A stretch of 64,000 nucleotides of DNA from Cymodocea nodosa (taxonomy: Eukaryota > Streptophyta > Magnoliopsida > Alismatales > Cymodoceaceae). The stretch spans positions 11,978,501-12,042,500 of the forward strand of contig CM072341.1 in assembly GCA_036874045.1 (NCBI GenBank), written 5' to 3'. Positions 10,500-60,700 of the stretch are shown in pieces. How positions within the stretch are numbered: the stretch's first letter is position 1; the number at the start of each line of letters is the position of its first letter. Under the pieces are notes generated by a model. It searched no databases. It was not told the DNA's origin and saw only the letters and a list, made by a program, of their open reading frames with translations. The position numbers and the translations under genes are program-made.

Positions 10500-12449
10500 C
10501 ATCAGGAAGTGAAAGAATTAGATGTAGTGATAGGTATCATTTAGGTCTCCTCATTCTCTACTTTGGCATTATTTGATCTTGGTGCTACTCATTCATTCAT
10601 TGCTTATGATTTTGTAAGCAATCATAATATTGATAATGTAGAGATTGACAACTAGATGGTAGTAGCCACCCTTGTCAGGAATACCCTAATAGTGGGATGA
10701 GTGTGTAAGACTTGTCAAATTCTAATAGAGAAAACAAACCTATCAGTAGATCTTTTTATTGATGAAGGACTTTGACATGATTTTGGGAATAAATTGGTTG
10801 ACAAACTACCATACCAATGTTGATTGTTTTGGGAAGTGAGTCTATTTCCAAATCTCAAGAGAGCTAGAATTCTATTTTGGTGGTATTAGCTAGAGTGCCC
10901 CCAAACTTGTTTCTATAGTTTATGTCAAATAGTTATTGTAGAATGGATGCCAAGGATATTTGGCATCAATCTTGGAGGTTGATGTGACAACCTTCAATTC
11001 GAATGACCTCCTAATTGTTTGAGAATTTGTTAACATATTTCTTGAGTTATTAGACATGCTAGTAGATCATGAGGTGGATTCAATATTGATTTGACTCTTG
11101 AGGTAAATCCAATCTCTAAAGCCGTTTATAGGATACCTCCTATAGAGTTAAAGAAATTGAAAAATCAAATTCATGAGCTATTAGAGAAGAAATTCATCCA
11201 ATCGAGCACATCTCCTTAGGGTACTTTTGTCTTTTTTGTAAAGAAAAAAGATAGATGTATGAGCTTGTATGTTAATTACAAAGAAGTGAATAAGGTGATT
11301 GCAAAGAATAAATACCCACTTCCAAGGATGGATGATTTGTTTGACTAAGTGCAAGGTGCTAAGGTCTTTTCCAAGATCGATTTGAGATCTAGGTACAATT
11401 GAAGATCAAGGCAAAATATGTGACAAAGATTTCCTTTCATACCTGTTACAGGTACTATGAACTTTTAGTGATGCGTTTTAGGTTGACTAATGCTCCAATA
11501 GTATTCATGGATTTGATAAATAGAAAATTCAAGCCCTATCTAGATCAATTCATGATTTTTTTGTTGATGATATCCTGATTTACTCCTGAAACAAAGTTGA
11601 ACATGAATATCATTTAAGGATTGTTTTGTAGGTGTTACGGGAGAAGAAACTTTTTGTCAAGCTGAAGAAATACAAATTTTGGTTGGACTACATGACCTTC
11701 CTAGGGCATGTGATCTCAAGTGATGAAATATTTGTTGATCCTAAAAAGGTGAAAGCAGTTAGTACTTGGAGTCAACCTAGATTAATAATAGAGATTTGTA
11801 GCATCTTGGGGCTTGTAGGTTACTATTGGAGGTTTATGAAAGGTTTTGCTTGAATTGACTAACCATTGGCGAAGTTGATACAAAAAGGGGTAAAGTTTAA
11901 CTGAACTCTAGAGTGTAAGCACAACTTCTAGAAGTTGAAGGATAGATTGATGCCAACTCTAGTTATAGTGCTTCTAAAGCTAGATGTTGATTTTACCATG
12001 TACAATGATGCATCCTTAAGAGGACTTGGTTATGTCTTGATGTAGTAAGGAAGGATAGTCGCCTATGCATCTAGGTAGTTGAAGTCCCATGAAGAGAAGT
12101 ACTTGACACATGATTTGGAATTAGCAACAGTTATCTTTGGACTCAAGATTTGGAGACATCATTTGTGTGACACCCCTTATGAGGTATTTACAGACCATAA
12201 GAATCTTAAGTACATCTTTACTTAGAAAAGGCTAAACATGAGACAAAGGAGATGACTAGAGTTATTGTAGGATTATGATTTGACCATATAGTACCATTTA
12301 GGGAAGGCTAATGTAATAGTGGATATCTTGAGCAAAAGATCATGTAGATCTCTAACAATATTATTGACACAACAAAGACAACTTTTGACAGATTTAGAAA
12401 GGCAAGAAATAGAGGTTTGTTGTCAAGGACTATAGGCCTTATTGGTCAC
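10500..12449 (+). pseudogene. Tekay-like protease–RT–RNase H remnant
   Basis: Protease: a LFDLGATHSFIAYDF segment at about 10570-10615 keeps the D-[ST]-G-like active-site neighbourhood, with Leu in place of Ser/Thr. [20 protein letters not shown] and [14 protein letters not shown] at about 11245-11345, then FFVDDILIYS at about 11555-11585 with the catalytic FVDD box. RNase H: YNDASLRGLGYVLM near 12003-12045. Numerous stops and shifts. The reading ends exactly where the Athila-like element is inserted (12449/12450). Confidence 0.85.
12445..12449. repeat. Target-site duplication (left copy)
   Basis: GTCAC precedes the left LTR of the nested Athila-like element and is repeated directly after its right LTR at 26311-26315. 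Five bases is the usual Ty3/gypsy duplication length. Confidence 0.9.
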
Positions 12450-14462
12450 TGTTTGGGTTTTCCTAGCACTACACTAGAAAAACTTGGATTTGTTACTTCT
12501 ATTTTTACTTAGTTAATTTATCTTTATGCCTATTCTTTCTTTTAGAAGTAAACAAACAACCTTTAATACAATTTAGATATTAATTTCAATTTGTACTTTA
12601 ACTGCAAGTGCACAATGTTTATTGTATCAGTGTGCAAGTACAGGTCGATCCCACAGGGAATTGCTAACGAATTTAAGAAATGTTTGATTGTGAACAATTC
12701 AAATTTATATTCAATAAGCACTCCATTGAGTTACAGTTAACTCAACAGACTAAGTTCGTTGAGTTATGGCTAACTCAACGGACTATCCTCGTGAACTTAA
12801 GTTAACTCTACGAGCCTGTCTCTTCTTTATAATACTACTGTTTACAGAGAAATTCAGCCAACCATTAGGCGATTCCACAGATTGTAAATAACATCAATTA
12901 AGCTTTTTAATGCTAGTTAACATTGGATTTATCATTAAGCAATACTAACATTCAGATGATTCAAACAGTCACCATTAAAATCTTTAAGTTTTTTGTACGA
13001 ACCAATTTCAGTAAACTGTAAAATTAAAACTAACATAAAACAATCATAAAACTGATACAGATAACATTAATCACGATACAACACAAACAATAAAACACTC
13101 AAATACAACATACAAACAAAGATAAATTGTTTTTGGTATTTTTGTTTTGATGTGAACATGGAAATGGGTGAAAGGTGAAATGTAAAGTAATCTCACTTGA
13201 TAGTAAATACTTCCAACACTACTTACAACGCGATTACACCACTGAAAATTAAACCACTTACAATTCTGTTTCCTCTCCCTATAGAATCTCGAGTCCAGAA
13301 TTGCAAGATGATCTCCTCTTCAACATACAGGCATCAACCCGAAGCCAAGGCTAAAAGCTTTACGATCTCCTGAAATATGAGTCGGCGCTTGGTGAAAATG
13401 GCTTCCCTTCCCGCGACGCGATCACTCCTCACAGTGGTTGTCAAGCACTATGTTTGGCTCGAAATCGACCCGACATTAGGCAAGTATCCTCACAGACCTC
13501 CGATGATTGGTGATTATGGTGGTGATAACGATGGTTGGTGTGATACTTCAGAGAATCGCCGATACTGTCTGTAGAAAAATCGGTGCTCCTCCTCTATATA
13601 CACTAGCCGTCCATCGATCACACTTTCTTCTTTTTTTCTTCTTTTCTTTTATATTTCTTTAGTAGTAACTGCTTCTACTTGAATAATCGGTTGGATTTCC
13701 TTCCTTCAGATCAACGGCGATGCTTCCTTCTCCATGCGCGATTGAATTCCTACGTGATACGTGCAAACGTGGTTTTTCCTTCCAACTGTCTGTTCCTGCA
13801 ACCGCTACAGTGGCATTTTAGAAAATAACTATAAAATACATGCAATAAAGAAATAAGCCACTAACCTAACGCGTTACCTTAATGTATATTCATGTAACTC
13901 AACGCGTACAGTTATGCTAACTTAACGAGTTATAACTTAAGTAAATCTACCAGCTCTCGACACGTGTCAACAGTAGTTTAAACATAAAATAACATTTCGG
14001 AGAGTTATAGGTATAACTATTCGATGCTCAGATGCATTTTCGGATAGTTACAGCTAACTCACCGAAAATTCACTTAAGACATTCATTTTGGTTTCGACAC
14101 GTGTACATCTGGAAATAATAAAATATTCTCTCTAAACATAACTGTTCGGCAATTTAAACATAACTATCCGATACATATTCGGTCTGTTAAACATAACTGT
14201 CCGAATTTGTTTGGTATGTTAAACATAACTATCCGAAATATCAGAAAATTCGGATACTTAAGAATTTCACAGCCTGCAACTTACCAACAATTCATAAATG
14301 TACTAAATTAACATTAATTCCCCAAAATTAAGTAGATTCTTCAATTAAAGCATATAATAGTGCAATTATAACATAATGGCTTAATTCTCATATGATAAGC
14401 TAAATATTATGCAATTAACCATCATTTAACCATTAATAATATGCACTTTTTCATTCTAAGCA
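12450..14462 (-). repeat. 3' LTR of the Athila-like element
   Basis: Starts TGTTTGGG and ends TAAGCA as written on the plus strand. It is nearly identical along its length to 24369-26310, except for about 70 extra bases near 14160-14240 that hold additional 'AACATAACTATCCGA' units. It contains the palindrome trio at about 12720-12815. The terminal polypurine tract adjoins it at 14463. Confidence 0.95.
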
Positions 14463-14475
14463 CTTCCCCCATACC
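14463..14475 (-). other. Terminal polypurine tract
   Basis: On the minus strand GGTATGGGGGAAG lies directly against the LTR start (TGCTTAGAATG), the expected site of plus-strand priming in reverse transcription. The same tract precedes the LTR of the copy at 35554. Confidence 0.85.
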
Positions 14476-16218
14476 TAAATTTTGCTAGTCCCTTAGCAAA
14501 CTAAGATCTAATTAATTGGTCTTTCAAAAAGTGCTAGAATTAATTCTTCCCCTTTTGTTTTTTTTCTTCTGTTTAGCATAAACATATATTCTGTATGTTT
14601 CAATAATCAACCTGCAAAGATATTTAGAATATATGTAAATTACATACAAAGTATATCATCTTCATATAGGTGTTAATTATATTATCGTTTGTTCTTCTTT
14701 TCATCATCTATAATCCTGAATTTTCCAATAAGTTTTCTAGAAGAAATTTCAACAACATACAAATCAAAGTACAATCCAATTCAATCTGATTAAGACAAGT
14801 AGAATAAAGAATTGTATTTCTATTAAACAACTTCAAAAGTCAATTCCAGATTCATATTTCAGCAATTCTAGATAACAGAAAATATACTCGATTCATAAGA
14901 TATCTGTATTTCACAAAACACTTGTATTTTTTCAGAACAGTATATGTTTTTTTTTTTGTGTGTACTTTAAAAGTTAATTTGACAAGCTTGAATCATACAA
15001 GAGCTTTCTAATGTACCCATGTAACGAGCTTTCAGTTAACAATCCTAGATCTGATCAGGATCTTAGGTTGCCAGATTTTCAGAGTCCTTTTTCAGGTCAA
15101 CAATCCTTACATACCTATCTGCTCAAGTACAAAAGGCTCGTGATCAAACAAGTCAATAAACTCTCAAAGTTTTTTTTTTTTCTAAAAATAAATGCACACA
15201 CAAAACAAAGCATTAATCACATACTGTATATGCACGTATTTCATTAATACAGATGTAGTAAAACACCAATCTCATATAATCCTGCTTTTATCATTTACTA
15301 AATATATGAATCTATAACAATAAGCTCATACTTTATCTGTAGTTTAATAAGATCTACAAATAATTCATTCTACAAGTTCAATCAGTCAAAGTAAATGTAT
15401 CTTTCATCATATGTATTTCATTTAATCTAGAATTCACATCTCAGCTCCTTCAGGACTTCAGATAATTTTTTGATTAAGCATTAAATATTCTGATTTCATT
15501 TTAAAATCGTGAAACTGTTAAACTCATGAAATTTAGAAAAATCATAAGATACTATATCTAGATTTACATAAATAATAAATTCTATAGCATCTTCTATAGC
15601 CTTCTAAATATAACATTCAAGCAGTTTATAAAAATTTTACAGTCTCAATTATCAGATAGTTACAGCAAGTTCATAAAAATTTTCAATTTCCTCAAAACTT
15701 TGCAGTACCATTTTAATTCCTTTAATTAACAAACTTACATGACTGTTACTTTAATAACCTCCCCCCATACCTACATTTTGCATTGTCCTCAATGTAAAAG
15801 ATTTGACAATAAGTACAGTAATTGTAGCAGACATGAATAAAGTTTTGTTTGATTTAAAATTCAGGATAAGTAATTGGTTACATACCTTGTTCCATTTGTA
15901 TCTCTTTCTACATATTCCGATTTTTGATTCTGAAAAACCTTTCATTCCTAGATAAATACAGAATATAAAACAAAATAACATTTAACAGATATTAATAAAT
16001 CAGTGTCTTGTGTGGAACCCAGGCTTCTATGCCTTTGGTGGCTCACAAGCAAGCCAGTTGGTTTCCCAAAACAGATACCAACAAACTAGATTGATATTTT
16101 GTTTTGTTTGTTTTTTTTTATTATAAAATAAACATGAAAAACTTCAAAATTCCTTTTTTCTTTTCTTTTTTTTAAAAAAAAATGCAGAATACACACGTGA
16201 AACACACAAAATCACAGC
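14476..16218 (-). other. 3' untranslated region of the Athila-like element
   Basis: AT-rich DNA between the end of the F-box frame and the terminal polypurine tract. No coding frame is supported. It contains a second polypurine tract (15758-15771). The copy at 34811-35553 has the same ends but lacks about 1 kb in the middle, including that second tract. Confidence 0.6.
15758..15771 (-). other. Internal second polypurine tract
   Basis: On the minus strand GGTATGGGGGGAGG is preceded by GCAAAATGTA, almost the same context as the terminal tract (GCAAAATTTA). A GAGGACAATG motif stands just upstream, as often found ahead of such tracts in Athila-type elements. It lies 1.3 kb before the LTR. Confidence 0.65.
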
Positions 16219-17355
16219 TTAAGAACATGATTGAAAAGTAGAAACAAATGGAATAAATGTATCAGTCCAAGCAAACTTTTTAGGCATAGTTCTTGCTATT
16301 AATTTTGTTTCAATGTAGTTCTTGTTCCTTTTTAATTTGTAAACATGCAATATATTATAAATTCCAAATACGAGTATATTACCATTAATGATATGTAATG
16401 CAGAAAGGGATCCTTTTTGGTTCTAGGGTAATGTAGCAGTTTCTATTTCTACATCTATTTCAATATACTCCTCTTCCCACTTCCATTCATTCATGTCTTC
16501 CATAATCCATATTTGAAATTTCATTAGTTTATCCCACCATCTTATCAGACATAAAGTAGGATCATCTTCTTCATTATACCACATTCCTATTTGAATTTCA
16601 TTAAATTCTGAAGATGGTGGTTTAGCTATTTCACTCGGTACAGTTAAAATTTCTATATAATCATCATAATTGTCTATGCTCACTATGTATAAATCAAATC
16701 CATATGCTAATGATATCTCCGTGACTAAATAGATATATCCATCAAGTATGACATGTGTTTGGTTAATTAATGATTTCTGTCCTAGATATATTATAATGTT
16801 TTCATTCCAAGATCTGTTCAGAAAATTATACACACTTAAGCGCAAATCTTCACCCCAATTTCCTGTATGTCTCCAATAATATAATTTTTCAGAAATTGTA
16901 GAATTTTTTTCAGAAAATATTAAAGCTGACCCATAATTTACAGTTGGTGCTTCAAATATATTAGGTCTTCCTATATTCCATTCTTCTCCTGTTATAGGAT
17001 TTCTTATCAAAATATCAGGTAATGATAAACTTGCATACCTTGGTCTCGTCTTGTATATGATTAATCCTTCATCTATCCCCATAATATGACTCATTCCTTC
17101 TAATGCATTGGGTGGAATTCCAGTAGTTTCTTCCATAGCAAGATATTCATGGGTATTTGAACTACGATTAAATGACCTCCATATGAATCCATCTCTAATC
17201 TTAGTCATTTTTGCAGCTTGTAGTCCTTGAAAATATTTTTCTTCAATATAGTCTTTAATTTCTTTTGATACACAACATAGCCTGCACAGATCTTTAGCTG
17301 ACAAGTTACTTAGTATTTCCCTTAGTGCATCCAACGGTAATTGCATTAATTCCAT
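16219..17355 (-). CDS. F-box protein gene carried inside the retrotransposon
   Basis: An ATG at 17355 opens a 310-residue frame that ends at a TAG (16423-16425). The same frame continues as clear coding sequence to a TAA at 16219-16221, for 378 codons. Residues 5-45 form an F-box (LPLDALREILSNLSAKDLCRLCCVSKE), the domain that binds SKP1 in SCF ubiquitin ligases. The rest is Trp/Tyr-rich and resembles the beta-rich C-terminal part of plant F-box proteins, a substrate-binding region of unknown target. The sister copy at 34548-34810 has TGG where this one has TAG, so the stop is probably a recent mutation. The gene is on the same strand as gag-pol and lies between gag and the 3' LTR, where some Athila elements carry an env-like ORF. 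It shows no homology that I recognise to env. Whether it is expressed is unknown. Confidence 0.85.
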
Positions 17356-17543
17356 TTGTCGATTCTGTAAAATAAAAACAAAAATTTAGCAGAGACAAAA
17401 ATTAACATAACTACTGCACACCCTCGTGGAGTTAAGTCATAACTCAACAGACTAAGTTCGTTGAGTTAAAAATTAACTCTACGATACTATTAACTTAAAA
17501 TAAAACATATATACATACAGATAGTTGCTTCAGATATGCTGCT

Positions 17544-18719
17544 TCATTCAGCTGCCCTCCCAGAAGAGGTATCAATTTCATTAACCGTTCTATTGACAGT
17601 ATTAGGTATAGCTTGTATTGGCAATCCTCTAGTAGGTCTAACTTCCATTGGTTCCTTCTGTCTAAGTGATATATTTCTATTCTAATTTTGATTTGCAGCA
17701 TTTCCAAATATAAATTCTAGACGATTGTTTATTTGTTGGATTATCTTTTCTAATTTCTCTATTCTAGCTCCTTGTTCAATTAATACTTCATAACTTATGT
17801 TCTTCTCATTTATATTTTCTCCTCCTTGAAAATTGTTGTTTCTCCAAGATAAATTCGGGTAATTTCTCAAATTAGGATTATAAGAATTTCCCAAGTTATC
17901 TCTCTAGTTTCTAGCATAAATAATATCTAAGTCATTTATGTTTGTATTCTTTTCTGCTAGCTTTTGATTTAATGATAACTCTTCTATTTTCTTTGTTAAT
18001 TCATTTAATTTCACCTCAAGCATAGTATTGGAATCTATTTCATGCATTCCTCTTGGCAATAATCTTTTATCTGCAGAGTTTTCCCACTATGCAGTTCTTT
18101 TTGCAAAATTTTCTAAATATGCCCATGCTTCTTCACTACATAATTTTTAAAATTCATTTTGACAAGTAGATTCTAATAAAGATTTCGTTGAAACATCTAT
18201 GCCTTCATAAATTATGCCTATTAATTGTGCTTTACTCGTTGCATGATGTGGACATTGAGTTAGTAAATCTTTAAATCTTTCAAAATATTTCTAGAATGAT
18301 TCACCCTGTTTTTGGCTACACATTAATATTTCTTTCTTCTTTTTAATCGTTTGATGTATTGGATAGTATTTTTCTAGAAAAACAGAGTAAAATTCAGTCC
18401 ATGTAGAAATTGAATCAGGCGATAAAGTATATAACAATCTCTTAGCTGTATCTTTTAAAGCAAAAAGGATATATCTAAGTTTAATAGCATCTATACTCAT
18501 GTTCAGCATTCTCATCATTTGACAAACTTTGTTAAATTCTCTAAGGAAATAATAGGCATCCTCTCTTTCTAATCCATGAAAATGTGGCAATTGACTAATA
18601 TAATTAGATTTCAGTTCAAACCTATCTCCCTCAAAGTTTGGCAATCGAATACATGAAGGTTCATCAATTAATTCAGGATACAAAATCTCTCCTAATGGTT
18701 TTTCTACTGGAGCAGCCAT
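17544..18719 (-). pseudogene. Athila-type gag capsid domain located downstream of pol
   Basis: From ATG at 18719 the frame reads EPSCIRLPNFEGDRF, then an LPHFHGLEREDAYYFLREF block and LRYILFALKDTAKRLLYTL with a W/F-x-F-x-KYYP block, the retrotransposon gag signature. Past a TAG it continues with FERFKDLLTQCPHH, a GMHEIDSN segment and NSYNPNLRNYPNLSWRNN at 17885-17830, all usual in Athila gag. The tail ends near 17544. Four in-frame stops (mostly CAG→TAG type) break it. No zinc knuckle is found between capsid and the YNPN segment; a knuckle lies instead at the start of the first ORF, 5.5 kb away. A second short frame (18876-18676) overlaps the start in another phase and may be older N-terminal coding. 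Confidence 0.85.
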
Positions 18720-18876
18720 CTCTACGTTCTCTTTTTAAAGAAAGGTTAGCTACACCCCAAAGAATTTCGTTAAAGTTCAGTTCAGAAAATTTTTCAGTAC
18801 TCCTCTGCAATGAAAATTCCTGGGTAGGTGTTCTTACTAATCGTTTAGTGCTTAGAGAACGAGTCCATGTGCTCAT

Positions 18877-20525
18877 AAATAAATAGCAGAAGATTAATTA
18901 CATACCAGTCTGAAGCTTTCCATTCTATAAATATTTGTTGTCAAATGAAGGTTGAATCAGCTGCTTCTCCTTCTAGTTCCTCCAACGCTTTCTCCTTTCT
19001 TTTAAAAGTGCTGGTAACTCGTAAATAACATTCTGTTTCATATATATACTGCGCATCCATAAAGTGAATAAATCTCATTACAAGAACGTGGCTTGCAACG
19101 TGCATCGTGGTTCCTGTTTTTATGGGTACGTGTACCACTACTAATTTCAAATTTTGGTAACCTTTAAACTGACGAAGTTTCGTTTGTGGTTAAAAGAATA
19201 ACCGTTCTGCTTAATCCATGAACTAACTTCGTTGAGTTACAGATTACTCAACAGAACACAATCAGTTACTGTTGCTAACTCCACGGACTAACTTCGTTGA
19301 GTTACAGATAACTCAACAGAGTGACCTTATATTATATTACTGACCTCGTGGAGTTACGGTTAACTCAACAGACTTACTTCGTTGAGTTAGCACTAGGCAA
19401 CTTCTACGTTTCACTCTCATATGTTTTCTATTCTGTTTTTTTTTCTTTGTTTTTCATTCTGCTAACTGTAATAAAGTTAAATTTATGTCATTAATGCCTC
19501 ATTTTGATTGAAATACATTTAAATCTGAACATTATATAAAGATTTAACTTACAGGTCATTTTACGTTATGCAGAATTTACATTTTACCTTATAACATGTA
19601 GAAATTTTTAAGCAATTATCTTGTCATTCAGCAAATTGGAAATCTATTACATATTCATAAAGTTCCACAAATTACATAATATTCAATAAATTCCATTCAT
19701 TTCACATCCAAATATGTATGAAAATTGCATCTGAAAAATTATATTCATTAATATGAATCAATTACATTACAAGTACATCATACAATTTCATACAATTTTA
19801 CACAAGTAGACGAACAATACAATTTAATCTCTATGCCTAAATTCATCTACTTCCTTCTGGAGTTTTTCTAATTTTAGGTCTTAGCTATAGTACTCCGTTG
19901 AGTTACAGTTAACTCAACGGAATAAGCTCGTTGACTAATTCAAAACTTAACGGAGTATGCTCGTTGAGTTAAGCGTAACTCAACGGACTCCTCGTACAAG
20001 CAAATATAATAATAAAAATATTACAGAGAATAGTTTTTCTATTTTTTTATCGGTTTAACCAATACTATGCTTCGGTCAGACCTAAATATTTTTTTATTTT
20101 TTTATTTTTCTTTCGATTGGACCGATACTATGTTTCGGTAAAACCAATATTTTTTTCTGAAAATTAATATACAATTTTTTTTTGCCAGTTTAACCGATAC
20201 TATGCTTCGGTCAAACATAAATATTTTTTATTTTTTTATTTTTCTTTCGGTTGGACCGATACTATGTTTCGGTAAAACCAATATTTTTTTCTGAAAATTA
20301 ATATACAATTTTTTTTAATGTTCCGGTCAAACTGATGGATCTAGTCGGTTGAACTGCAACTATTTTTATGTTTTATATATATTTTTAATGTTTTTTTTTT
20401 TTAAACATATATATATAAACATAAAAACTGATTTCTTACTAAGTAAAGCTCGAGTAGTCCTCTACTCTGACTTCTTCTATAATTCCAAAGGAGCTTTTTG
20501 GTGTTTTCAGAATAGGTTTAAGTCT
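18877..20525 (-). other. Palindrome-rich non-coding block in place of the integrase core
   Basis: Between the truncated integrase and gag there is no coding signal. The block holds several copies of the CGTTGAGTTA...TAACTCAACG palindrome (about 19225-19400 and 19893-19985) and a tandem duplication (20045-20315). The integrase DDE catalytic core expected here is absent. Confidence 0.75.
20045..20315. repeat. Tandem duplication, two units of about 134 bp
   Basis: The unit contains GGACCGATACTATGTTTCGG; its first copy is at 20119 and the second at 20253. The flanking T-rich runs, AAACCAATATTTTTTTCTG segments and ATTAATATACAAT also repeat in order. Each unit includes an imperfect palindrome CCGATACTATGTTTCGG. 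Confidence 0.85.
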
Positions 20526-23127
20526 TTATCCATTTACTTTAAATATATTCTGATTTTTAGGATTTTCAAATCTTAAACAACTTAAGCAATATTTATGAGC
20601 ATCTTTGAATAGTGTTGGCGAATAAAACCTACATTGCAGAATTTTTGTAGCAGTTTTCCCTAAACCAAAATGTCCTCCACAAGCTTGGTCATGATAGAAA
20701 GACAATATGCTCGAATATTCAGTTTCTGGAACACACCTCCTTAAAACCAGATTAGGAAATTTCTTAAATAAGTAAGGGTCTTCCCAACAGTAATATTTTA
20801 CTCTTGAGAAAAACAATTTCTTACCCTGTCTATTCCAATCCTTAGGTGTTAAACCAGTAACTAAGTAATTAACTATGTCTACATACCAAGGCATTGTGTT
20901 GATGGTCATTAATTGTTCATCAGGAAAATTGTCCTTAATTTCAATATTTGATTTTTCTATTTATAATCTTGATAAATGATCTGCTACTACATGCTCACAA
21001 CCTTTTTTATCTTTAATTTCTAAATCAAATTCTTGCAATAATAATATCCATCAGATCAATCTAGGTTTAGTTTCTTTTTTCTTTATTAAATGTTTTAGAG
21101 CTGAATGATCCGTGTATACTATTACTTTAGCTCCAATTAGATATGATCTAAACTTTTCTAAAGCAAACACAACAGCTAATAATTCTTTTTCAGTAGTTGT
21201 GTAATTAACTTGAGCATCATTTAAGGTTTTGCTTGCATAATGAATCACTCTAGGAGATTTTTCTATCTTTTGTCCTAACACTACTCCTACAATAAAATCA
21301 GAAGCATCGCACATTAATTCAAATGGATGGTTCCAATTAGGTACTTGAATTATAGGAGTTGAAATTAAGCTAGTCTTAAGTTTGAAAAATGCTTTTTTGC
21401 AATTTTTATCAAAGTTAAATGGAACATCTTTTAATAGATTAGTTAAAGGTCTAGCTATCTTGCTAAAGTCTTTAATAAATATTCTATAAAAACCAGCATG
21501 TCCTAGAAATGATCTAATATCTTTTATTGATTTAGGTTCTGGTAGATTAGAAATTACTTCTATTTTAGCTTTATCTACTTCCAACCCTTTTTTAGAAACA
21601 ACATGCCCTAAGACTATTCCTTGTTTAACCATGAAGTGACATTTTTCCCAATTTAAAATCAGATTTTTTTTCCACACAACGTTTTAATATTTGGTCTAAA
21701 TTGCTTAAACACACTTCATATGAGTTGCCATATACAGTAAAATCATCCATAAATATTTCTAAAAATTCTTCAGTCATTCTAGTAAATATGCCCTGCACAC
21801 ACCTTTGCAAGGTAGTTGGCGCATTGCATAATCCGAATGGCATTCTTTTAAAAGCATAAGTTCCATTAGGACAGGTGAAAATTGTTTTCTCTTGATCCTC
21901 TAATGCTACTGGAATTTGATTATACCCTGAATACCCGTCTAGGAAACAAAAATTTTCTTGCCCTGCTAATCTTTCCAGCATTTGATCTATAAAAGGTAAG
22001 GGAAAATGATCTTTCCTAGTCACAACATTCAGCTTTCTATAGTCTATACATACTCTCTAACCTGATTGAATTCTAGTAGGTATCAAGTCTTGACTTTCAT
22101 TCCTAATAATTGTTAATCCTGATTTCTTGGGAACTATATGGATTAGACTAACCCACGAGCTATTAGAAATCGGATAAATTATATCATTATCTAACCACTT
22201 AACTATTTCCTTCCTGACTACTTCCTTAAGGTTTGGATTTAATCTCCTCTTAGGAATTCTAACAGGTTTAGCATTCTCTTCTAAATATATGTGGTGACAG
22301 CATAAAGTTGAACTTAACCCTTTTATATCAGTCATAGTCCATCCTATTGCTTCTTTATAACTTTTTACTACATCTTTTAATTTAGCTATTTGATCCTCTT
22401 TTAAATCTGAAGCAATAATGATTGGATAGGTCCGTTTATCTTCTAGAAATATATAGGTTAATTCAGGAGGTAAATGTTTTAATTCTAAATGCTGCCCATC
22501 AGAAGCTAGAGCTCCTAATTGAACATCATCATTTTTTAAATTAATTTCTTCCTGATCTCCTTCTATATTTATGCTTTCACTTTCTTTTAAAGTTTCAGAA
22601 TTGATTTGCCTATTTAATTCTTCTTGAATCACATCATCTAACATATCTCCTTCATCCTCTAAAAAGTCTATGGTATGTAAGGATATTTCTAACTCCTCAA
22701 ACCTTTCTGGTTTGAAAATATTTAATTGAGTATCCTCATTACCATATGCTAACTTCATTACTCCAGTTTTACAATTTATAACAGCCCCTAATGTTGCTAA
22801 AAATAGCCTTCCCAAAATTAAAGATGTATCACTATTTTTATGCTTAATTTGTTGGGAATCCAAAATTACAATATCAATAGGATATATAAAATTCTTGATT
22901 TTAATTAAGACATCCTCTATTTTTCCTCTAGGGTATCTTATACTTCTATCAGCTAATTGAATAATCGTACTAGTAGGAGTTAAGCCTTCTAATCCTAATG
23001 ATGCAAATATATCACTTGGCATAACATTTATACCTGCACCTAAGTCTATTAAGGTTCTTTCTAGAATGATATTTCCTATGGTGCATGATATAACAGGGAT
23101 TCCAGGATCAGATAACTTTTTAGGAAT
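20526..23127 (-). pseudogene. Athila-type protease–RT–RNase H–integrase N-terminus
   Basis: The order on the minus strand is as follows. Protease: LIDLGAGINVMPSDIFASL at about 23055-22995. RT: KPVRIPKRRLNPNL, WVSLIHIVPKKSG, then VCIDYRKLN and FCFLDGYSGYNQI, with the catalytic FMDD box at 21753-21739. RNase [18 protein letters not shown] and [13 protein letters not shown]. Integrase: the zinc-binding H-H-C-C module (YHDQACGGHFG ... KYCLSCLRF) at about 20700-20560, stopping at 20526. Disablements are few: stops near 23126, 22057, 21050 and 20970, and one frameshift near 21665. No integrase catalytic core (D,D-35-E) follows, so integration would have to be supplied in trans. Confidence 0.88.
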
Positions 23128-24234
23128 TTATGGCAGAAATAGGGAACTACTTTGCTCAACTAAAAAGACCTTTCTAAGAACTTTTCGCTCTCTTTTCTTA
23201 GTACACCAATCCTTCAGAAATTTAGCACAAGGTGGCATATGTTGCAATAGATCTAATAAAGGAATGTTAACTTGTACTTTTTCAAAAATTTCTCTGATTT
23301 TTTCTTGTTTTTCAGGAATTGTTTGTTGTAATCTTTTAGGATAGGGTGCTAAAGATTTTGATTTCAAAGACTCTTTTTCTTTCAGTTGATTTGTTTGATC
23401 ATTTTTGACTTCAATTGCAAATTCAGATTGTTCTTCAGTGATTTCTAGATTTTCAGCTATTACATTTTCATTATCATTTTGATTTTTACTCTTGTCCACC
23501 TTCATATCATTTTCATTTTGAGTTCTTGGTGGTATATCAGTTCTAGATCTTAATGTTACACATACATCTTCTAGATTTTCGTTACTTTCATGATGTTTTT
23601 GTATATCATTTTCGTGATTATGATCTTCAATTATTTTTAGTTTTAAAGTGCATTCTTTAAATTCTCTTACATTAGTGTTTTCTGTTTGTTGTATATTTTG
23701 TAAGTTGTGTAGGTTTATAACATTATAATTTTCATTGTCCTGTTGCAAAACTTGTATTTTCATTGTATTTTTGTCTAATGCTTTTAATTTTGTTTCCAGA
23801 TCATCTAATTTCATTACATTCAATTTTTGATCAATTTTCTTTATGACTTTTTTAGTTTCGTAAATTATATCCTGTTTAGGTTCTGAATATGCCTCCTTAT
23901 AGTTTAACCGGTTGACTTCTTGTTGTTGACACACAAAGTATTCCAGTTTGTTCAGATTTTGCTCTATACTATGCTCCAGTCTGTCATAGCTATCCCAAAC
24001 TTCAGTGTCTCTTATCATATTACACATTCTATACTGACCATCAGTTGGGTACACTATAGGATTCTCATACTCGGCTCTATTATATTGAGGATAATTCATT
24101 TGTTGTTCATGGGATCTAACAATCTGTAAATGTCTCAATTTCAAACAATCAGAAATGTCGTGTTCTTCAGAATTGCAGAATTCACATATGCTAATTAAAG
24201 GTTTCAGAAATCTTTGAGCATAAGCATATGCCAT
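23128..24234 (-). CDS. First ORF of the Athila-like element: zinc knuckle plus gag–protease linker
   Basis: The ATG at 24234 follows the primer-binding site by about 110 bases and opens a 369-codon frame. A CX2CX4HX4C knuckle (CEFCNSEEHDISDC) stands at residues 15-28. A long polar, Asn/Glu-rich and coiled-coil-like middle follows. The end, from AYPKRLQQTIPEKQEKIREIF through VNIPLLDLLQHMPPCAKFLKD, is the conserved region before protease in Athila polyproteins. A single stop near 23126 separates it from protease. No capsid domain precedes the knuckle. The homologous ORF at 59630 has the same start and layout. Confidence 0.82.
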   Translation of the reverse strand: MAYAYAQRFLKPLISICEFCNSEEHDISDCLKLRHLQIVRSHEQQMNYPQYNRAEYENPIVYPTDGQYRMCNMIRDTEVWDSYDRLEHSIEQNLNKLEYFVCQQQEVNRLNYKEAYSEPKQDIIYETKKVIKKIDQKLNVMKLDDLETKLKALDKNTMKIQVLQQDNENYNVINLHNLQNIQQTENTNVREFKECTLKLKIIEDHNHENDIQKHHESNENLEDVCVTLRSRTDIPPRTQNENDMKVDKSKNQNDNENVIAENLEITEEQSEFAIEVKNDQTNQLKEKESLKSKSLAPYPKRLQQTIPEKQEKIREIFEKVQVNIPLLDLLQHMPPCAKFLKDWCTKKRERKVLRKVFLVEQSSSLFLP

Positions 24235-24343
24235 ATTCTCAATTACAAAAGAAAACACACAACTCTAGCTATTAAAACGAAACAGCTCTAACAGTTACTT
24301 ATATTAATTCAATTCAATTCACTTCGACTCAATTCAATTCAAT

Positions 24344-24361
24344 TCCCCAGCAATGGCGCCA
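24344..24361 (-). other. Primer-binding site
   Basis: On the minus strand TGGCGCCATTGCTGGGGA begins 7 bases after the LTR end. It has the Athila-type PBS wording, reported in that group as complementary to the 3' end of tRNA-Asp. The copy at 59536 reads TGGCGCCATTGCCGGGGA. Confidence 0.85.
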
Positions 24362-24368
24362 TAAAACT

Positions 24369-26310
24369 TGTTTGGGTTTTCCTAGCACTACACTAGAAAA
24401 ACTTGGATTTGTTACTTCTATTTTTACTTAGTTAATTTATCTTTATGCCTATTCTTTCTTTTAAAAGTAAACAAACAACCTTTAATACAATTTAGATATT
24501 AATTCTAATTTGTACTTTAACTGCAAGTGCATAGTGTCTATTGTATCAGTGTGCAAGTACAGGTCGATCCCACAGGGAATTGCTGACGAATTTAAGAAAT
24601 GTTTGATTGTGAACAATTTAAATTTATATTCAATAAGCACTCCGTTGAGTTACAGTTAACTCAACGGACTAAGTTCGTTGAGTTATGGCTAACTCAACGG
24701 ACTATCCTCGTGGACTTAAGTTAACTTCACGAGCCTGTCTCTTCTTTATAATATTGCTGTTTACAGAGGAATTCGGCCAACCATTGGGCGATTCTACAGA
24801 TTGTAAATAACATCAATTAAGCTTTTTAATGCTAGTTAACATTGGATTTATCATTAAGCAATACTAACATTCAGATGATTCAAATAGTCACCATTAAAAT
24901 CTTTAAGTTTTTTGTACAAACCAATTTCAGTAAACTGTAAAATTAAAACTAACGTAAAATAATCATAAAACTGATACAGATAACATTAATCACGATACAA
25001 CACAAACAATACAATACTCAAATACAACATACAAACAAAGATAAATTGTTTTTGGTATTTTTGTTTTGATGTGAACATGGAAATGGGCGAAAGGTGAAAT
25101 GTAAAGTAATCTCACTTGATAGTAAATACTTCCGACACTACTTACAACGCGATTACACCACTAAAAATTAAACCACTTACAATTCTGTCTCCTCTCCCTA
25201 TAGAATCGCGAGTCCAGAATTGCAAGATGATCTCCTCTTCAACATACAGGCATCAACCCGAAGCCAAGGCTAAAAGCTTTACGATCTTCTGAAATATGAG
25301 TCGGTGCTTGGTGAAAATGTCTTCCCTTCCCGCGATGCGATCACTCCTCACAGTGGTTGTCAGACACTATGTTTGGCTCAGAATCGACCCAACATCAGGC
25401 AAGTATTCTCACAGACCTCTGATGATTGGTGATTATGGTGGTGATAACGATGGTTGGTGTGATACTTCGGAGAATCGCCGATACTGTCTGCAGAAAGCTC
25501 GGTGCTCCTCCTCTATATACACTGGCCGTCCATTGATCACACTTTCTTCTTTTTTTCTTCTTTTCTCTTATATTTCTTTAGTAGTAATTACTTTTGCTTG
25601 AATGATCCTTTGGATTTCCTTCCTTCAGATCAACGGTGATGCTTCCTTCTCCATGCACAATTGAATTCCTGCGTGATACGTGCAAACGTGGTTTTTCCTT
25701 CTAACTGTCTGTTCCTGCAATCGCTACAGTGGCATTTTAGAAAATAACTATAAAATACATGCAATAAAGAAATAAGCCGCTAACCTAACGTGTTACCTTA
25801 GTGTATATTCATGTAACTCAACGCATGCAGTTATGCTAATTTAACGAGTTATAACTTAAGTAAATCTACCAGCTCTCGAAACGTGTTAGCAGTAGTTTAA
25901 ACATAAAATAACATTTCGGAGAGTTACAGGTATAACTATCCGATGCTCAGATGCATTTTCGGATAGTTACAGCTAACTCACCGAAAATTCACTTAAGACA
26001 TTCATTCTGGTTTCAACACATGTACATCTGGAAATAATAAAATATTCTTTCTAAACATAACTATTCGACAATTTAAATATAACTATCCGATACATATTCG
26101 GATACTTAAGAATTTCATAGCCTGCAACTTACCGACAGTTCATAAATGTACTAAATTAACATTAATTCCCCAAAATTAAGCAAATTTTTCAATTAAAGCA
26201 TATAACAGTGCAATTATAACATAATGGCTTAATTCTCATATGATAAGCTAAATATTATGCAATTAACTATTATTTAACCATTAATAATATGCACTTTTTC
26301 ATTCTAAACA
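24369..26310 (-). repeat. 5' LTR of the Athila-like element
   Basis: As written on the plus strand it runs from TGTTTGGG to TAAACA. It carries three consecutive palindromes at 24642-24667, 24676-24699 and 24707-24733 and a second palindrome type at 25934-25968 (AACTATCCGA...TCGGATAGTT). An open frame of 63-101 codons on the plus strand (25296-25601), antisense to the element, recurs in the other LTR copies. Confidence 0.95.
24642..24733. repeat. Run of three short palindromes in the 5' LTR
   Basis: Each can fold into a hairpin with a 9-12 bp stem: CCGTTGAGTTA/TAACTCAACGG, CGTTGAGTTA/TAACTCAACG and CTCGTGGA../..TCACGAG with ACTTAAGT in its loop. The same trio recurs at about 12720-12815, 37035-37135, 59130-59230 and 61000-61085. 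The stems contain the pentamer AACGG in inverted pairs. Confidence 0.85.
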
Positions 26311-26315
26311 GTCAC
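26311..26315. repeat. Target-site duplication (right copy)
   Basis: GTCAC follows the right LTR directly, matching 12445-12449. Removing the element and one copy restores the Tekay reading ALLVT...LLQRIKG. Confidence 0.9.
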
Positions 26316-34307: not shown

Positions 34308-34547
34308 TACTTCGACTCAATTCAATTCAGTTCAATTCCTCAACAACGGTGCCATAAAACTTGTTTGTGTTTTCCCAACACTACACTAGAAAAACTTGGA
34401 TTTGTTACTTCTATTTTTACTTAGTTAATTTACCTTTATGCCTATTCTTTCTTTTAAAAGTAAACAAACAACATTTAATGCAATTTAGATATTAATTCTA
34501 ATTTGTACTTTAACTTTAAGTACACAGTGTCTATTGTATCAATTTTC

Positions 34548-34810
34548 CTAGAAGAGGAGTATATTGAAATAGATGTAGAAATAAAAACTACTACATTACC
34601 TTGGAACCAAAAAGGATCCCTTTCTGCATTACATATCATTAATGGTAATACACTCGTATTTGGAATTTATAATATATTGCATGTTTACAAATTAAAAAGG
34701 AAAAGAACTGTATTAAAACAGAATTAATAGCAAGAAGAACTATGCCTAAAAAGTTTGCTTGGACTGATACATTTATTCCATTTGTTTATACTTTTCAATC
34801 ATGTTCTTAA
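34548..34810 (+). pseudogene. 3' end of the retroelement F-box gene, second copy
   Basis: It encodes EEEYIEIDVEIKTTTLPWNQ and onward to KKFAWTDTFIPFV..FQSCS, collinear with residues about 296-378 of the F-box ORF at 17355-16219. It keeps TGG where the other copy has TAG but has its own frameshift near 34705 and a stop at about 34725. The 5' three quarters of the gene are missing. Confidence 0.88.
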
Positions 34811-35553
34811 GCTGTGATTTTGTGTGTTTAATGTTGTGTATTCTGCATTTATTTTTAGAAAGAAAAAAAAAAGAATTTTGAAGTTTTCATGTTCATTTTA
34901 TAAAAACAAAAAAAAACAAAAGGGGAACCTAAGATCCTGATCAGATCTGGGATTGTTGACTAAAAGCTCGTTATATAGGTACATTAGAAAGTTCTTGTAT
35001 GATTCAAGCTTGTCAAATTAACTTTTAAAGTACACCAAAAAAAAGAAAAAAAGAAAAGAAAAAAAACATATACTATTCTGAAAAGATACAAGTGTTTTGT
35101 GAAATACAGATATCTTATGAATCGAGTATATTTTCTGTTATCTAGAATTGCTGAAATATGAATCTGGAATTGACTTTTGAAGTTATTTAATGGAAATACA
35201 ATTCTTTATTCTACTTGTCTTAATCAGATTGAATTGGATTGTACTTTAATTTGTATGTTGTTGAAATTTCTTCTAGAAAAACTTATTGGAAAATTCAAGA
35301 TTACAGATGATGAAAAGAAGAATAAACGATAATATAATTAACACCTATATGAAGATGATATACTTTATATGTAATTTACATATATTCTAAATATCTTTGC
35401 AGGTTGATTACTGAAACATACAGAATATATGTTTATGTTGAATAGAAGAAAAAAAAAACAAAAGGGGAAGAATTAATTCTAGCACTTTTTGAAAGACCAT
35501 TTCATTAGATCTTAGTTTGCTAAGGGACTAGCAAAATTTAGGTATGGGGGAAG

Positions 35554-37404
35554 TGTTTAGAATGAAAAAGTGCATATTATTAATGGTTAAATGATGGTTA
35601 ATTGCATAATATTTAGCTTATCATATGAGAATTAAGTCATTATGTTATAATTACACTGTTATATGCTTTAATTGAAGAATTTGCTTAATTTTGGGGAATT
35701 AATGTTAATTTAGTACATTTATGAACTGTCGGTAAATTGCAGGCTGTGAAATTCTTAAGTATCCGAAAATGCATCTAAGCATCGGATAGTTATACCTATA
35801 ACTCTTCGAAATGTTATTTTATGTTTAAACTACTGCTGGCACGTGTCAAGATCTGGTAGATTTACTTAAGTTATAACTCGTTAAGTTAGCATAACTGTAC
35901 GCGTTGAGTTGCTATATTGAACACTAAGGCAACGCGTTAGGTTAGCGTTATAAACTTAAGTTGTTATTTTTGCACGTGTTTTATAGTTAAATCAACGAAG
36001 GAAATCCGTTGAGTTATCTGTAACTCCACAGACTATATATTTTCTAATATGCCACTGTAGCGGTTGCAGGAACAGACAGTTGGAAGGGAAAACTACGTTT
36101 GCACGTATCACGCAGGAATTCAATCGCGTAGGGAGAAAGAAATCATCGCCGTTGATCTGAAAGAAGGAAATCCAACCGACCATTCAAGCAGAAGTAGTTA
36201 CTACTGAAGAAATATAAAAGAAAAGAAGAAAAAAAGGTGTGTGATCGATGGATGGCTAGTGTATACAGAGGAGGAGCACCGAGCTTTCTACAGATAGTAT
36301 CGGCGATTCTCCGAAGTATCACACCAACCATCGTTATCACCACCATAATCACCAATCATCGAAGGTCTGTGAGGATACTTGCCTGATGTCGGGTCGATTT
36401 CGAGCCAAACACAGTGCCTGACAACCACAGTGAGGAGTGATCGCATCGCGGGAAGAGAAGCCATTTTCACCAAGCGCCGACTCATACTTCAAGAGATCAT
36501 AAAGTTTTTAGCCTTGGCTTCAGGTTGATGCCTGTATGCTGAAGAGGAGATCATCTTGCAATTCTGGACTCGCGATTCTATAGGGAGAGGAGACAGAATT
36601 GTAAGTGGTTTAATTTTCAGTGGTGTAATCGCGTTGTAAGTAGTGTCAAAAGTATTTACTATCAAGTGAGATTAATTTACATTTCACCTTTCGCCCATTT
36701 CATCAAAAACAAAAATACCAAAAACAATTTATCTTTGTTTGTATGTTGTATTTGAGTGTTGTATTGTTTGTGTTGTATCGTGATTAATGTTATCTGTATC
36801 AGTTTTATGATTGTTTTATGTTAGTTTTAATTTTACAGTTTACTAAAATTGGTTCGTACAAAAAACTTAAAGATTTTAATGGTTACTATTTGAATCATCT
36901 GAATGTTAGTATTGCTTAATAATAAATCTAATGTTAACTAGCATTAAAAAGCTTAATTGATGTTATTTACAATCTGTGGAATCGCCCAATGGTTGGCCGA
37001 ATTCCTCTGTAAATAGCAGTATTATAAAGAATAGACAAGCTCGTGGAGTTAACTTAAGTCTACGAGGATAGTCCGTTGAGTTACCCATAACTCAACGAAC
37101 TTAGTCCGTTGAGTTAACTGTAACTCAACGGAGTGCTTATTGAATATAAATTTGAATTGTTTACAATCAAACATTTCTTAAATTTGTCAGCAATTCCCTA
37201 TGGGATTGACCTATACTTGCACACTGATACAATAGACATTGTGCACTTGCAGTTAAAGTACAAATTGGAATTAATATCTAAATTGTATTAAAGGTTGTTT
37301 GTTTACTTCTAAAAGAAAGAATAGGCATAAAGATAAATTAACTAAGTAAAAATAGAAGTAACAAATCCAAGTTTTTCTAGTATAGTGCTGGGAAAACACA
37401 AACA
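35554..37404 (+). repeat. LTR of the rearranged Athila-like copy
   Basis: It begins TGTTTAGAATG after a polypurine tract and ends ACACAAACA. It is collinear with the two LTRs of the nested element read in reverse complement, with deletions. It contains the antisense open frame (36485-36288) and the palindrome trio near 37035-37135. Confidence 0.9.
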
Positions 37405-55110: not shown

Positions 55111-57493
55111 TCGGGGGGTGTATCCCGTACATCTAGAAAATGACGTAAAGAAAGATAAGAATAATGTGTGAAAATGATAAAAAAAAAAATTTAATTTTGA
55201 CTTTTCTTAGTATTTGGACATGGTAACGAAATTTAGGTATCTGTCTGTGTAATTGAAAATGATAGAATTTTAATATGATTATTAATACATCATAATAAAT
55301 AATAAATGGATTATCTATAAATCATAATATTCATAAATTATTATAAAATCTAAAAGTATCAATACAAGCAGATAAAGTTCAAATATAAAATATTAAAATT
55401 GAGCGTCACAATTTTTTATTATCTCACGTAGATTTCATAATATCTTTATTATTACTAATTTGCTTATTATATTCTTGACTTCGTTCAAAACTATTATATA
55501 TTACCTCTTCTCTTTTAACATGATCAAAAAAACATTTGGAAGATCAATAATCTTAATTTCAATGAATTCATCTTGAAGTTTTAGGTTCCAAGAAAATCTG
55601 TTTTATCTATTTTACGAATAATAAAATTGTGTAAATGAAAATATTTTAGAATAATCTTAATTTCTGTTTTAAAGGAAAATGAAACGTAACATTACAATAT
55701 TAAAAAATGATGCATTATTATTTTTAAATGTAAATGATGATAATTAAAGTTACCTGTGACCAGTCAATTAATATCATATTCAATTAAGTGATGCTGAACA
55801 ATTGAAAATCAATAAATAAATTCTAATCAATTTAGATAACCAACAAAAAAGAAAAACTTGCTATAAACTACCATGTTAAATTGCATGGACCCCAATCGAC
55901 TATGATCGCTTTTTTCTCCAACTGAAAACCCTCGTCTTTTCCATTTCTTCACCTTGGTAAAAGAAGAAGAAGAGGGGGGGGATCTCTTAAGAAGAGTAAT
56001 ATTTAATGATTGGTGCAAAGTCATTGATAAGTTCAGTAAAAGACTTGAAGAAGGTTGGAAAGAAAAGTTCCGACCCAAGTAAACCAATTTGTTCTTTTCT
56101 TACCTCTCCATCCTTCACTTAAAACCAAAAATATCATTTCGTCCATTGGCACAACATCTGTAAATCAAAAAACACCTAAGGAGGGTTTGTTAGAATTTTT
56201 TTGTTTCAGTTGGTTTGTCTTGCTAACACAAGTTATATATTGTTCAGATAATCAAGTTCACCATAAATCACATTATGCTAGTTTCTTGTGCTGATCGGTC
56301 AAGGTTACCATGTGTGGAATGAACTTTGAACAATAAATGTAATGAATTTTTATTCTGTAAGGGTTTCTCGTGCAGAGAAGCCTTTACATTAGTTACATTG
56401 AACTTTCTTTAGATGTTTTCCATAAGACTGTTACATGCTTTAGCACAAGCACAATAAATGAAACCACAAGGTCATTAGTTGTGTATTCTCTCCCTAAGAC
56501 AACAATCACTAAATGCAACGCACAACCCCAAAAATAGAAGTTAGAACATTCAAAAAACAGACATTATTGTTTAGGAACAGACGTCTGCACTAGATGCCCA
56601 CCGATATAAGTTTCAAATAGATGTTGAACTCTACTATAATGTTCCTATTTGCTTGATGTATATTAGATTTGTTAATATATAAAACTCAGATTATTATATA
56701 AATTTATGTCTTATGGTCTGGATGATTTTAAGTTAATTAATTGAGATGATTACGCATAAGATTGTTTGATCATATATATATATACACCTGTAATGGTTTT
56801 TGCTTCAGATTATATGAAGTTTAGATTACACATAATTGAGATTATTATATGTTGAACCTAAGTTTAATAACATTGTGTCATCGTTCTATTATAATCAATT
56901 AATATTGAAGTAATTTTTTTTTCTGTCATCGTTCTCTTATATGAATTTTTTTTTATCAATTGATTTTAAGATAAGATTCAATAAGATTAGAAGAAAAACT
57001 TGTAATCTATACACGCATAGTTTCATAATCTTCTTAAATATGTATTATTATATTTAAAAATGCACTACAAAATACTTTGAACTTATTTCATTTTCTTATG
57101 ATTTCATTTTTATGATAATGGATCTTCTTAATTTAGTAGATCATCTATGCATTTTGTATCGTAATGCACTAATCATGTTCACATAAATTTGTTAGATATT
57201 TGACATAATTGTCTTTTTTTATTATACAATTAACATTACATCATCACCAAAATTGAATATAGTATAGAAAATATAGCCTCTGAGAAAAGAAAATATGTGA
57301 ACTAGAGTACAAAACAAGATGAAATTTTTTTAGGTATATTAGTAATAGAAATCAAAGAAGGAAATGTAAAACAATAAGATGGTAAGCTTAAAGCAGAGAC
57401 ATGGATAAATGTGATTGTTAAATATAATGCTCAACCAAATGCCAATGTCTAGAAAAAACACATAGAAAGTAAAATGAAAACCTAGAGGACCAT
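55111..57493. other. Intergenic AT-rich DNA
   Basis: No gene, RNA or element is recognised. Short open frames here show no family resemblance. A short (TA)n run is near 56776-56786. Confidence 0.6.
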
Positions 57494-59528: not shown

Positions 59529-59535
59529 AGTTTTA

Positions 59536-59553
59536 TGGCGCCATTGCCGGGGA
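59536..59553 (+). other. Primer-binding site
   Basis: TGGCGCCATTGCCGGGGA stands 7 bases after the LTR end, spaced exactly as in the nested element on the other strand. Confidence 0.88.
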
Positions 59554-59629
59554 ATTAATATAAGCAACTGTTAGAGCTATTTTGTTTTAATAGCTAGAGT
59601 GTTGTGTGTTTTCTTCTGTAATTGAGAAT

Positions 59630-60690: not shown

Positions 60691-60700
60691 GCATAAAACT

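What the first reader, a model, noticed from the sequence alone, without database searches (positions are those of the whole stretch)
16219..24361. Athila-like family with gag capsid moved behind pol and no integrase core
After the PBS the element opens with a zinc knuckle, protease, RT, RNase H and the integrase HHCC module only. The gag capsid domain, with its YNPNLRNYPNLSW tail, lies 5.5 kb downstream, next to the 3' LTR. In known Ty3/gypsy elements capsid comes first and the knuckle follows it in the same protein. The copy at 57494-60690 also starts with the knuckle directly after the PBS, so the layout belongs to the family, not to one damaged copy. This could be a non-autonomous lineage that makes Gag from a separate downstream transcript and borrows integrase.
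Basis: partly seen in the sequence, partly recalled or inferred. Interest (0 to 1): 0.8.

Follow-up and report, generated by a model that had tools for sequence, protein, structure and literature searches.

The report
Retrotransposons with capsid gene last
In this plant, a large group of Athila-like jumping genes carries its shell (capsid) gene behind its enzyme genes instead of in front, and begins instead with a small RNA-binding zinc motif fused to the enzymes, an order that the sampled families share and that textbook elements do not have.

Summary
The element at 12450-26310 (minus strand) is one insertion with GTGAC duplications.

It is family-wide. In the held genome, 6 of 6 further copies read upstream have LTR, leader and knuckle ORF1 ahead of capsid; 5 of 6 show every domain from protease to integrase C terminus. 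The integrase-core loss is a deletion of the window copy, so 'non-autonomous, borrows integrase' is not supported.

Three divergent sister families show the same order. Of 28 gag loci taken from a Pfam search, 13 lie behind integrase, 15 behind this family's spacer. A metagenome protein, P0001, is also knuckle-first and groups with three of the families (protease tree, 99), near a canonical-order protein.

Best reading: a deep Athila-type lineage, apparently of one origin, with gag behind pol and a knuckle kept on Pol; capsid would need its own message. That step is inferred. A search for canonical-order elements in this genome did not complete.

The parts
26311..26315 (-). target-site duplication GTGAC, 5' side
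24369..26310 (-). 5' LTR (TG...CA)
   Evidence: 95.4% identical over a 1733-bp piece to the 3' LTR; read
24344..24361 (-). primer binding site TGGCGCCATTG..., tRNA-Asp type (type by comparison with Diaspora, and recall)
23128..24234 (-). ORF1: knuckle CX2CX4HX4C 16 residues after the ATG, linker, VTLRS and PYPKRL stretch leading into protease; stops here in this copy, while copy L040 has one open frame through this point
22057..23022 (-). protease and start of RT
   Evidence: tblastn; no Pfam match
21625..22023 (-). reverse transcriptase
   Evidence: PF00078 1e-18
21051..21677 (-). RNase H
   Evidence: PF17917 8.8e-32
20526..20909 (-). integrase H2C2 zinc domain joined to the last residues of the integrase C terminus; about 0.9 kb with the core missing near 20570
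   Evidence: PF17921 8e-10; junction compared with L043
18720..20525 (-). pol-gag spacer with 134-bp tandem repeat (20042-20316), LTR-like ACTCAACG motifs (19999-19880, 19399-19220), TATA-like 19049-19040, candidate intron 18905-18805
   Evidence: candidate sites only
17545..18719 (-). gag capsid gene; stop-broken in this copy; open 395-codon frame in copy L049, without a knuckle in the motif scan
   Evidence: PF03732 4.9e-6, 1.5e-19 for L049
16219..17355 (-). F-box gene (ORF 17355-16423 here, 379 codons in copy L048), weak F-box-associated match
   Evidence: PF00646 1.4e-10; PF07734 0.017, below cut-off; F-box sequence in 28 of 30 capsid loci
14463..16218 (-). 3' untranslated stretch with two polypurine-like tracts (about 15762-15771 and 14463-14475)
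12450..14462 (-). 3' LTR
12445..12449 (-). target-site duplication GTGAC, 3' side
57492..60691 (+). second copy: LTR, PBS, ORF1 with decayed knuckle, then truncated
34551..37404 (+). third copy: end of F-box gene, 3' untranslated stretch and LTR

Best explanation
It is one damaged copy of an abundant Athila-type LTR retrotransposon lineage with a rearranged gene order. Shown: a short knuckle-bearing N terminus is fused to protease-RT-RNase H-integrase behind the PBS, and the capsid gene lies behind integrase, in four families of this plant (F, the window's, and A, B, D). Family F also carries an F-box gene behind capsid. Inferred: these families and P0001 descend from a canonical capsid-knuckle-protease Athila by one event that put a gag copy behind pol, after which the front gag lost its capsid. 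Inferred: the full-length RNA makes knuckle-Pol, and a spliced or internally started RNA makes capsid, so that the Gag:Pol ratio is set by separate RNAs. The knuckle on Pol may bring Pol into particles through RNA, since Pol is no longer carried in by a Gag-Pol fusion. The window copy moved as one unit and then decayed.
For: One unit: LTR pair with GTGAC duplications; a second capsid-last copy has GTGAT on both sides; a copy of family D has the same order inside LTRs 97.9% identical over 1442 bp. Family-wide: 6 of 6 copies have knuckle ORF1 upstream of capsid and integrase-core sequence, 5 of 6 every domain from protease to integrase C terminus. Of 30 capsid loci (window copy included), 29 have the family spacer and 1 a pol stretch upstream; 28 have F-box sequence downstream. 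Sister families: the 8 best gag hits all have integrase frames upstream; of 20 further gag hits 5 lie behind integrase and 15 behind this family's spacer, none with a TGGCGCC PBS in the 1.3 kb before it. Knuckle-first ORF1 in families A, B and D. RT tree: F, A and B on one branch, 94. Protease tree: these three plus P0001, 99. Canonical order elsewhere: e.g. P0076, P0080, P0082 have gag motif, knuckle, YNPxWRNHPN, TLRSG in one protein; the neighbour P0058 has knuckle, YNP, TLRSG. ORF1 N/S ratio 0.49 against 0.64 for protease-RT.
Against: No RNA or protein data. My acceptor scan found no site above threshold before capsid in families F and D; it found some in A and B and before the F-box. Trees are quick ones with long rows flagged (P0001, FamF, FamB); family D is not in them. 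The LTR pair of family A was not resolved (only a 74-bp identical repeat), that of B not at all, and the duplications of D were not read. Only the best-scoring gag hits were scored (150 of 4640), so canonical elements may exist in this genome; the search meant to test this did not complete. The exact knuckle motif is decayed in L041, L042, L044 and in the copy at 57492. P0001 is a gene call on a 2210-base contig, and what lies upstream of it is unknown.
Confidence: 0.75

Rival explanations
1. Single-copy accident: 16219-18876 is a nested or recombined fragment inside one element.
For: The copy is damaged: stops in gag, core of integrase deleted.
Against: Capsid lies in 29 other fetched loci at 92-96% DNA identity, with the family spacer upstream in 28 of them and F-box sequence downstream in 27, and behind a knuckle ORF1 in 6 of 6 copies read further upstream; two copies have clean target duplications.
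Confidence: 0.02
2. One reading: a non-autonomous lineage without integrase that borrows it from others.
For: The window copy lacks the core; L044 lost most of pol and L034 lost ORF1 and pol.
Against: 6 of 6 other copies keep integrase-core sequence and 5 of 6 the whole domain set; rve in L042 at 9.2e-14. Deleted copies may be borrowers, the lineage is not.
Confidence: 0.04
3. The downstream capsid is an accessory second gag (decoy or regulator), while the working Gag comes in trans from canonical Athila elements of the same plant.
For: Capsid and pol knuckle are on different proteins; in the family F and B frames scanned the capsid gene has no knuckle; recombination among distantly related Athila elements is reported (start of the abstract of PMC2410132, search listing).
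Against: Order kept in four families; many of the 150 scored capsid stretches have no stop; N/S 0.34 for capsid, though those loci were picked by capsid score; family A copy L002 has a full gag with its own knuckle behind pol; no capsid-first gag among 28 sampled gag loci.
Confidence: 0.15
4. Convergent, repeated rearrangement rather than one origin.
For: Families are deeply divergent (RT about 64-77% identical); leaders differ in length (about 0.13 to 1.85 kb).
Against: One branch in both trees (94, 99); the knuckle sits 16 to 22 residues after the first in-frame ATG in the five proteins compared.
Confidence: 0.1

Closest known systems
Athila clade of Ty3/gypsy (Athila4, Calypso, Diaspora, Bagy-2, Cyclops-2; names in PMC6317226 and PMC1142308)
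   Same: PBS of tRNA-Asp type a few bases behind the LTR, CX2CX4HX4C knuckle, PR-RT-RH-IN order, extra genes near the 3' end in most members (Diaspora passages). Every species named among the 120 listed relatives of the long L040 frame is a plant.
   Different: Diaspora has one gag-pol ORF drawn as gag core, knuckle, protease, RT, integrase. Here capsid follows integrase and the pol ORF opens with a knuckle.
Foamy viruses (Pol made apart from Gag)
   Same: Pol is not a Gag fusion, so Pol packaging and the Gag:Pol ratio need another route; FV Pol comes from a spliced mRNA (abstract and passages of PMC3705302).
   Different: Gene order there stays gag-pol-env and Pol is the spliced product; here Pol comes first and capsid would be the downstream product. 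No relationship implied.
Plant LTR elements with extra 3' ORFs (env-like ORFs; orchid AlkB gypsy elements)
   Same: A sense extra gene between pol and 3' LTR (PMC7264820 read in two of three parts; PMC9289625 abstract and passages).
   Different: The extra gene here is an F-box gene, and gag itself sits in that region. The word F-box does not occur in the main text of PMC9289625.

Membership tests
Athila clade (Ty3/gypsy, OTA) | RT and protease closest to Athila-type plant elements | tested here: inconclusive
   Relatives are plant pol or gag proteins; in the RT and protease trees families F, A and B fall among them, apart from a small separate group holding the PITA (recalled as Pinus) rows: 4 rows, 3 PITA, in the RT tree; 3 rows, 2 PITA, in the protease tree. 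No named Athila reference sequence was in the trees, so the clade name is by motif and recall.
Athila clade (Ty3/gypsy, OTA) | tRNA-Asp type PBS behind the 5' LTR | tested here: met
   TGGCGCC(G/A)TTGC in window, families A and D; TGGCACCGTTGC in B. Asp assignment after and recall.
Athila clade (Ty3/gypsy, OTA) | domain order GAG-PROT-RT-RH-INT | tested here: not met
   PROT-RT-RH-INT met, GAG last. PMC6317226 section 6 gives Ty3/gypsy as GAG first.
Athila clade (Ty3/gypsy, OTA) | capsid and knuckle in one gag protein | tested here: inconclusive
   Family A copy L002: yes, behind pol; decayed in L007. Frames scanned of F (L049) and B (L004): no knuckle. D: motif present but stop-broken in the copy read.
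LTR retrotransposon | LTR pair, PBS, PPT, target-site duplication, RT, RNase H, integrase | tested here: met
   Family F; family D without duplications read. Integrase core absent in the window copy, present in 6 of 6 others.
Retrovirus with env | envelope gene | tested here: inconclusive
   Extra 2.3-kb ORF region in L039, L040, L042; of three L039 frames scanned, only a weak Transposase_32 match (0.0038, below cut-off) and other below-cut-off hits. No search for membrane segments was made.

The most novel reading that the evidence does not exclude
An autonomous retroelement lineage, at least four families deep, abandoned Gag-Pol linkage. Gag became a separate gene behind pol and Pol kept a private nucleocapsid-like knuckle to get itself and the RNA into particles, a plant counterpart to the foamy-virus solution reached by moving gag rather than splicing pol; one branch then added a captured F-box gene that may act on host protein turnover.
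Probability: 0.45. Interest if true: 0.85.

Novelty: new variant of a known kind. Interest (0 to 1): 0.75.

Why it matters
Gag-first order is used to define and to find LTR retrotransposons. A major plant survey removed its elements with domains in unexpected order as likely mispredictions (PMC6317226 section 6), so such a lineage could be filtered out. If real and active, it separates capsid supply from Pol supply and makes testable how a retroelement sets its Gag:Pol ratio and packages Pol without a Gag-Pol fusion. In my paper searches no listed title or abstract start reported gag behind pol in Athila or other plant Ty3/gypsy elements; the library holds only openly licensed papers and I opened six.

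Tried and rejected
Nested fragment, single-copy damage and missing integrase as a family trait were tested and rejected. A relic LTR in the spacer: local alignment to the 5' LTR beat the best of 60 shuffles for 20020-19700 (374 against 233), 19450-18990 (334 against 234) and narrowly for 19700-19400 (242 against 226) and 17600-17356 (218 against 211), but not for 20525-20000 (223 against 261) or 19200-18720 (200 against 214); the strong cases rest mainly on the ACTCAACG palindromes; left open. Capsid relics in the leaders of families A, B and D: none below E 0.3. Splicing: candidate sites only, uneven across families. F-box origin: no homologue among 563 candidates, none in PDB below E 0.6; structure model too poor to use (mean pLDDT 36.5). 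F-box constraint is weak: N/S 0.77-0.88 in 26 copies, 0.80 in three; rows left out: L009, L022, L028, L029, L038 for the F-box, L009 and L027 for capsid. Rows with under 120 (RT) or 110 (protease) aligned residues were left out of the trees (39 of 125 and 118 of 123 kept). Viral contigs held no confirmed relative of the RNase H piece. tRNA scan empty.
Full report
What is in the window. On the minus strand, 12450-26310 is one LTR retrotransposon with matching 5-bp target duplications GTGAC and LTRs 95.4% identical over the main 1733-bp piece. Reading 5' to 3': LTR 26310-24369, PBS 24361-24344, ORF1 24234-23128 with a CX2CX4HX4C knuckle 16 residues after its ATG, protease, RT, RNase H, integrase H2C2, a 1.8-kb spacer, capsid 18719 to about 17545, an F-box gene (ORF 17355-16423), a 1.75-kb untranslated stretch, polypurine tract, LTR 14462-12450. 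Pfam supports RVT_1, RNase H, Integrase_H2C2, Retrotrans_gag and F-box; ORF1 and the protease piece have no Pfam hit. In the copy at 57492 the layout LTR-PBS-ORF1 is the same, with the last cysteine of the knuckle replaced.

Is it the family or this copy. The genome holding the window is available. A search with the 142-residue capsid piece gave 5613 first-look candidates; the 150 scored matched at 90-100% identity. In the 30 loci fetched with 1.5 kb on each side (the window copy among them), capsid is 92-96% identical at DNA level in the 29 others; 29 of 30 have this family's spacer upstream (in L012 with a repeated piece of capsid between), 1 (L027) a pol stretch; 28 have F-box sequence downstream, the exceptions being L022 and L038. 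One locus, L034, has LTR and PBS within 1.5 kb, but with the spacer between: it lost ORF1 and pol and is a deletion derivative.

Upstream of capsid. Ten-kb stretches ahead of six copies (L039-L044; 6 of the 150, two or three chosen for long open frames) all hold the family LTR, leader and knuckle ORF1. Domain by domain, 5 of 6 run knuckle, protease, RT, RNase H, integrase zinc domain, integrase core, integrase C terminus, capsid; the sixth, L044, has the same order with protease to H2C2 lost. These are tblastn matches of pieces, not proof of intact genes. The exact knuckle motif stands in the window, L039, L040 and L043 and is decayed in L041, L042 and L044; my PBS pattern matched in L039, L042, L043 and L044, not in L040 and L041. 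L042 carries Integrase_H2C2 and rve (9.2e-14), L049 a 395-codon capsid frame, L048 a 379-codon F-box frame. The window copy's missing core is thus a deletion of about 0.9 kb near 20570. A second copy, L041 with L070, has GTGAT on both sides.

Other families. The eight best Retrotrans_gag hits of the genome belong to other families; all eight have integrase reading frames upstream of gag. Upstream stretches: family A (L045) has PBS 3730, a knuckle-first frame at 4881, then protease to full integrase and gag; family B (L046) likewise; family D (L073 with L052) likewise, with a 1034-codon open frame from the knuckle through RNase H. Family D's order lies inside an LTR pair 97.9% identical over 1442 bp; its target duplications were not read. 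For family A only a 74-bp identical repeat was found, and for B no LTR pair, so their units are less well bounded. I then took 20 of the remaining 142 listed gag hits at steps down the list, dropping one pick and swapping two that I took for window-family copies: 5 lie behind integrase, 15 behind this family's spacer, none with a TGGCGCC PBS in the 1.3 kb upstream. One of the 20, L064, is the same copy as L037. Family A copy L002 keeps a knuckle in its downstream gag; the B and F frames scanned have none, and in a second A copy, L007, the motif is decayed.

Relatives elsewhere. ORF1 alone found one protein, P0001, on a 2210-base metagenome contig, knuckle at residue 20 and the TLRSG stretch at 150, no capsid motif. 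The long L040 frame found 138 proteins, 120 listed; every species named is a plant. Several show the canonical order in one protein, e.g. P0076, P0080, P0082 and P0095 of Malus: gag motif, knuckle, YNPxWRNHPN, TLRSG. In a protease tree of 118 rows, families F, A and B plus P0001 form one branch (SH-aLRT 99) next to P0052, P0058 and P0063 (Tasmannia, a magnoliid); P0058 has knuckle, YNP motif and TLRSG in canonical order. An RT tree of 39 rows also unites F, A and B (94). Both trees are quick ones with long rows flagged, and family D is in neither. One origin from a canonical ancestor is the simplest reading.

How it may work. Pol no longer hangs on Gag. The five knuckle-first proteins compared keep the motif 16 to 22 residues from the first in-frame ATG, and ORF1 is at least as constrained as protease-RT among copies (0.49 against 0.64, 7 and 6 copies), so the knuckle on Pol is probably used. 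Capsid needs its own message: candidate splice sites and a TATA-like box lie ahead of it, and a good acceptor ahead of the F-box gene, but my scan did not find an acceptor above threshold before capsid in families F and D. Foamy viruses show that Pol can be made and packaged apart from Gag (PMC3705302, abstract and passages). The F-box gene is shared by the family but weakly constrained (0.77-0.88), so it may be a passenger.

Literature. Diaspora, an Athila relative, has a single gag-pol ORF with gag core, knuckle, protease, RT, integrase (PMC1142308, passages). A large survey removed its elements with domains in unexpected order as likely mispredicted (PMC6317226 section 6). Ten paper searches were made; in the nine on gene order, Athila structure or F-box capture no listed title or abstract start reported this order. 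I opened six papers: parts of PMC7264820, passages and one section of PMC6317226, passages of PMC1142308, PMC9289625, PMC3705302 and PMC5408684.

Limits. No RNA data; the plant is unnamed; only top-scoring gag loci were scored; the searches for ORF1, for the F-box gene and for canonical elements in this genome did not complete.

Noticed in passing
16219-17355 (-), and 28 of 30 capsid loci: An F-box gene, probably of host origin, rides in this retrotransposon family behind capsid; weakly constrained, with a strong acceptor-like site ending at 17365.
   Followed up: partly
34301-34541 and 60692-61084: Two other copies in the window each carry an inverted LTR-end piece joined to the sense element, palindrome-like junctions that recall self-integration or template switching.
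   Followed up: no
L034 1-3426: Deletion derivative LTR-PBS-tandem-repeat spacer-capsid-F-box without ORF1 and pol.
   Followed up: partly
L039 6126-8397 and the same place in L040, L042: Extra reading frames of about 2.3 kb between integrase and capsid, absent in the window copy, L041 and L043; weak match to PF20167, below cut-off.
   Followed up: partly
19999-19880, 19399-19220, 17479-17420: ACTCAACG palindromes found in the LTR recur ahead of capsid and ahead of the F-box gene; possible shared control motifs.
   Followed up: partly
20042-20316: Two 134-bp tandem repeats with ACCGAAACATAGTATCGGT, present in variable form in other copies.
   Followed up: no
11641-12243: A distant RNase H match (34% identity) of another retroelement lies just beside the insertion.
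   Followed up: no
L004 1-900: This family's LTR end is joined directly to the integrase C terminus of family B, a hybrid junction.
   Followed up: no
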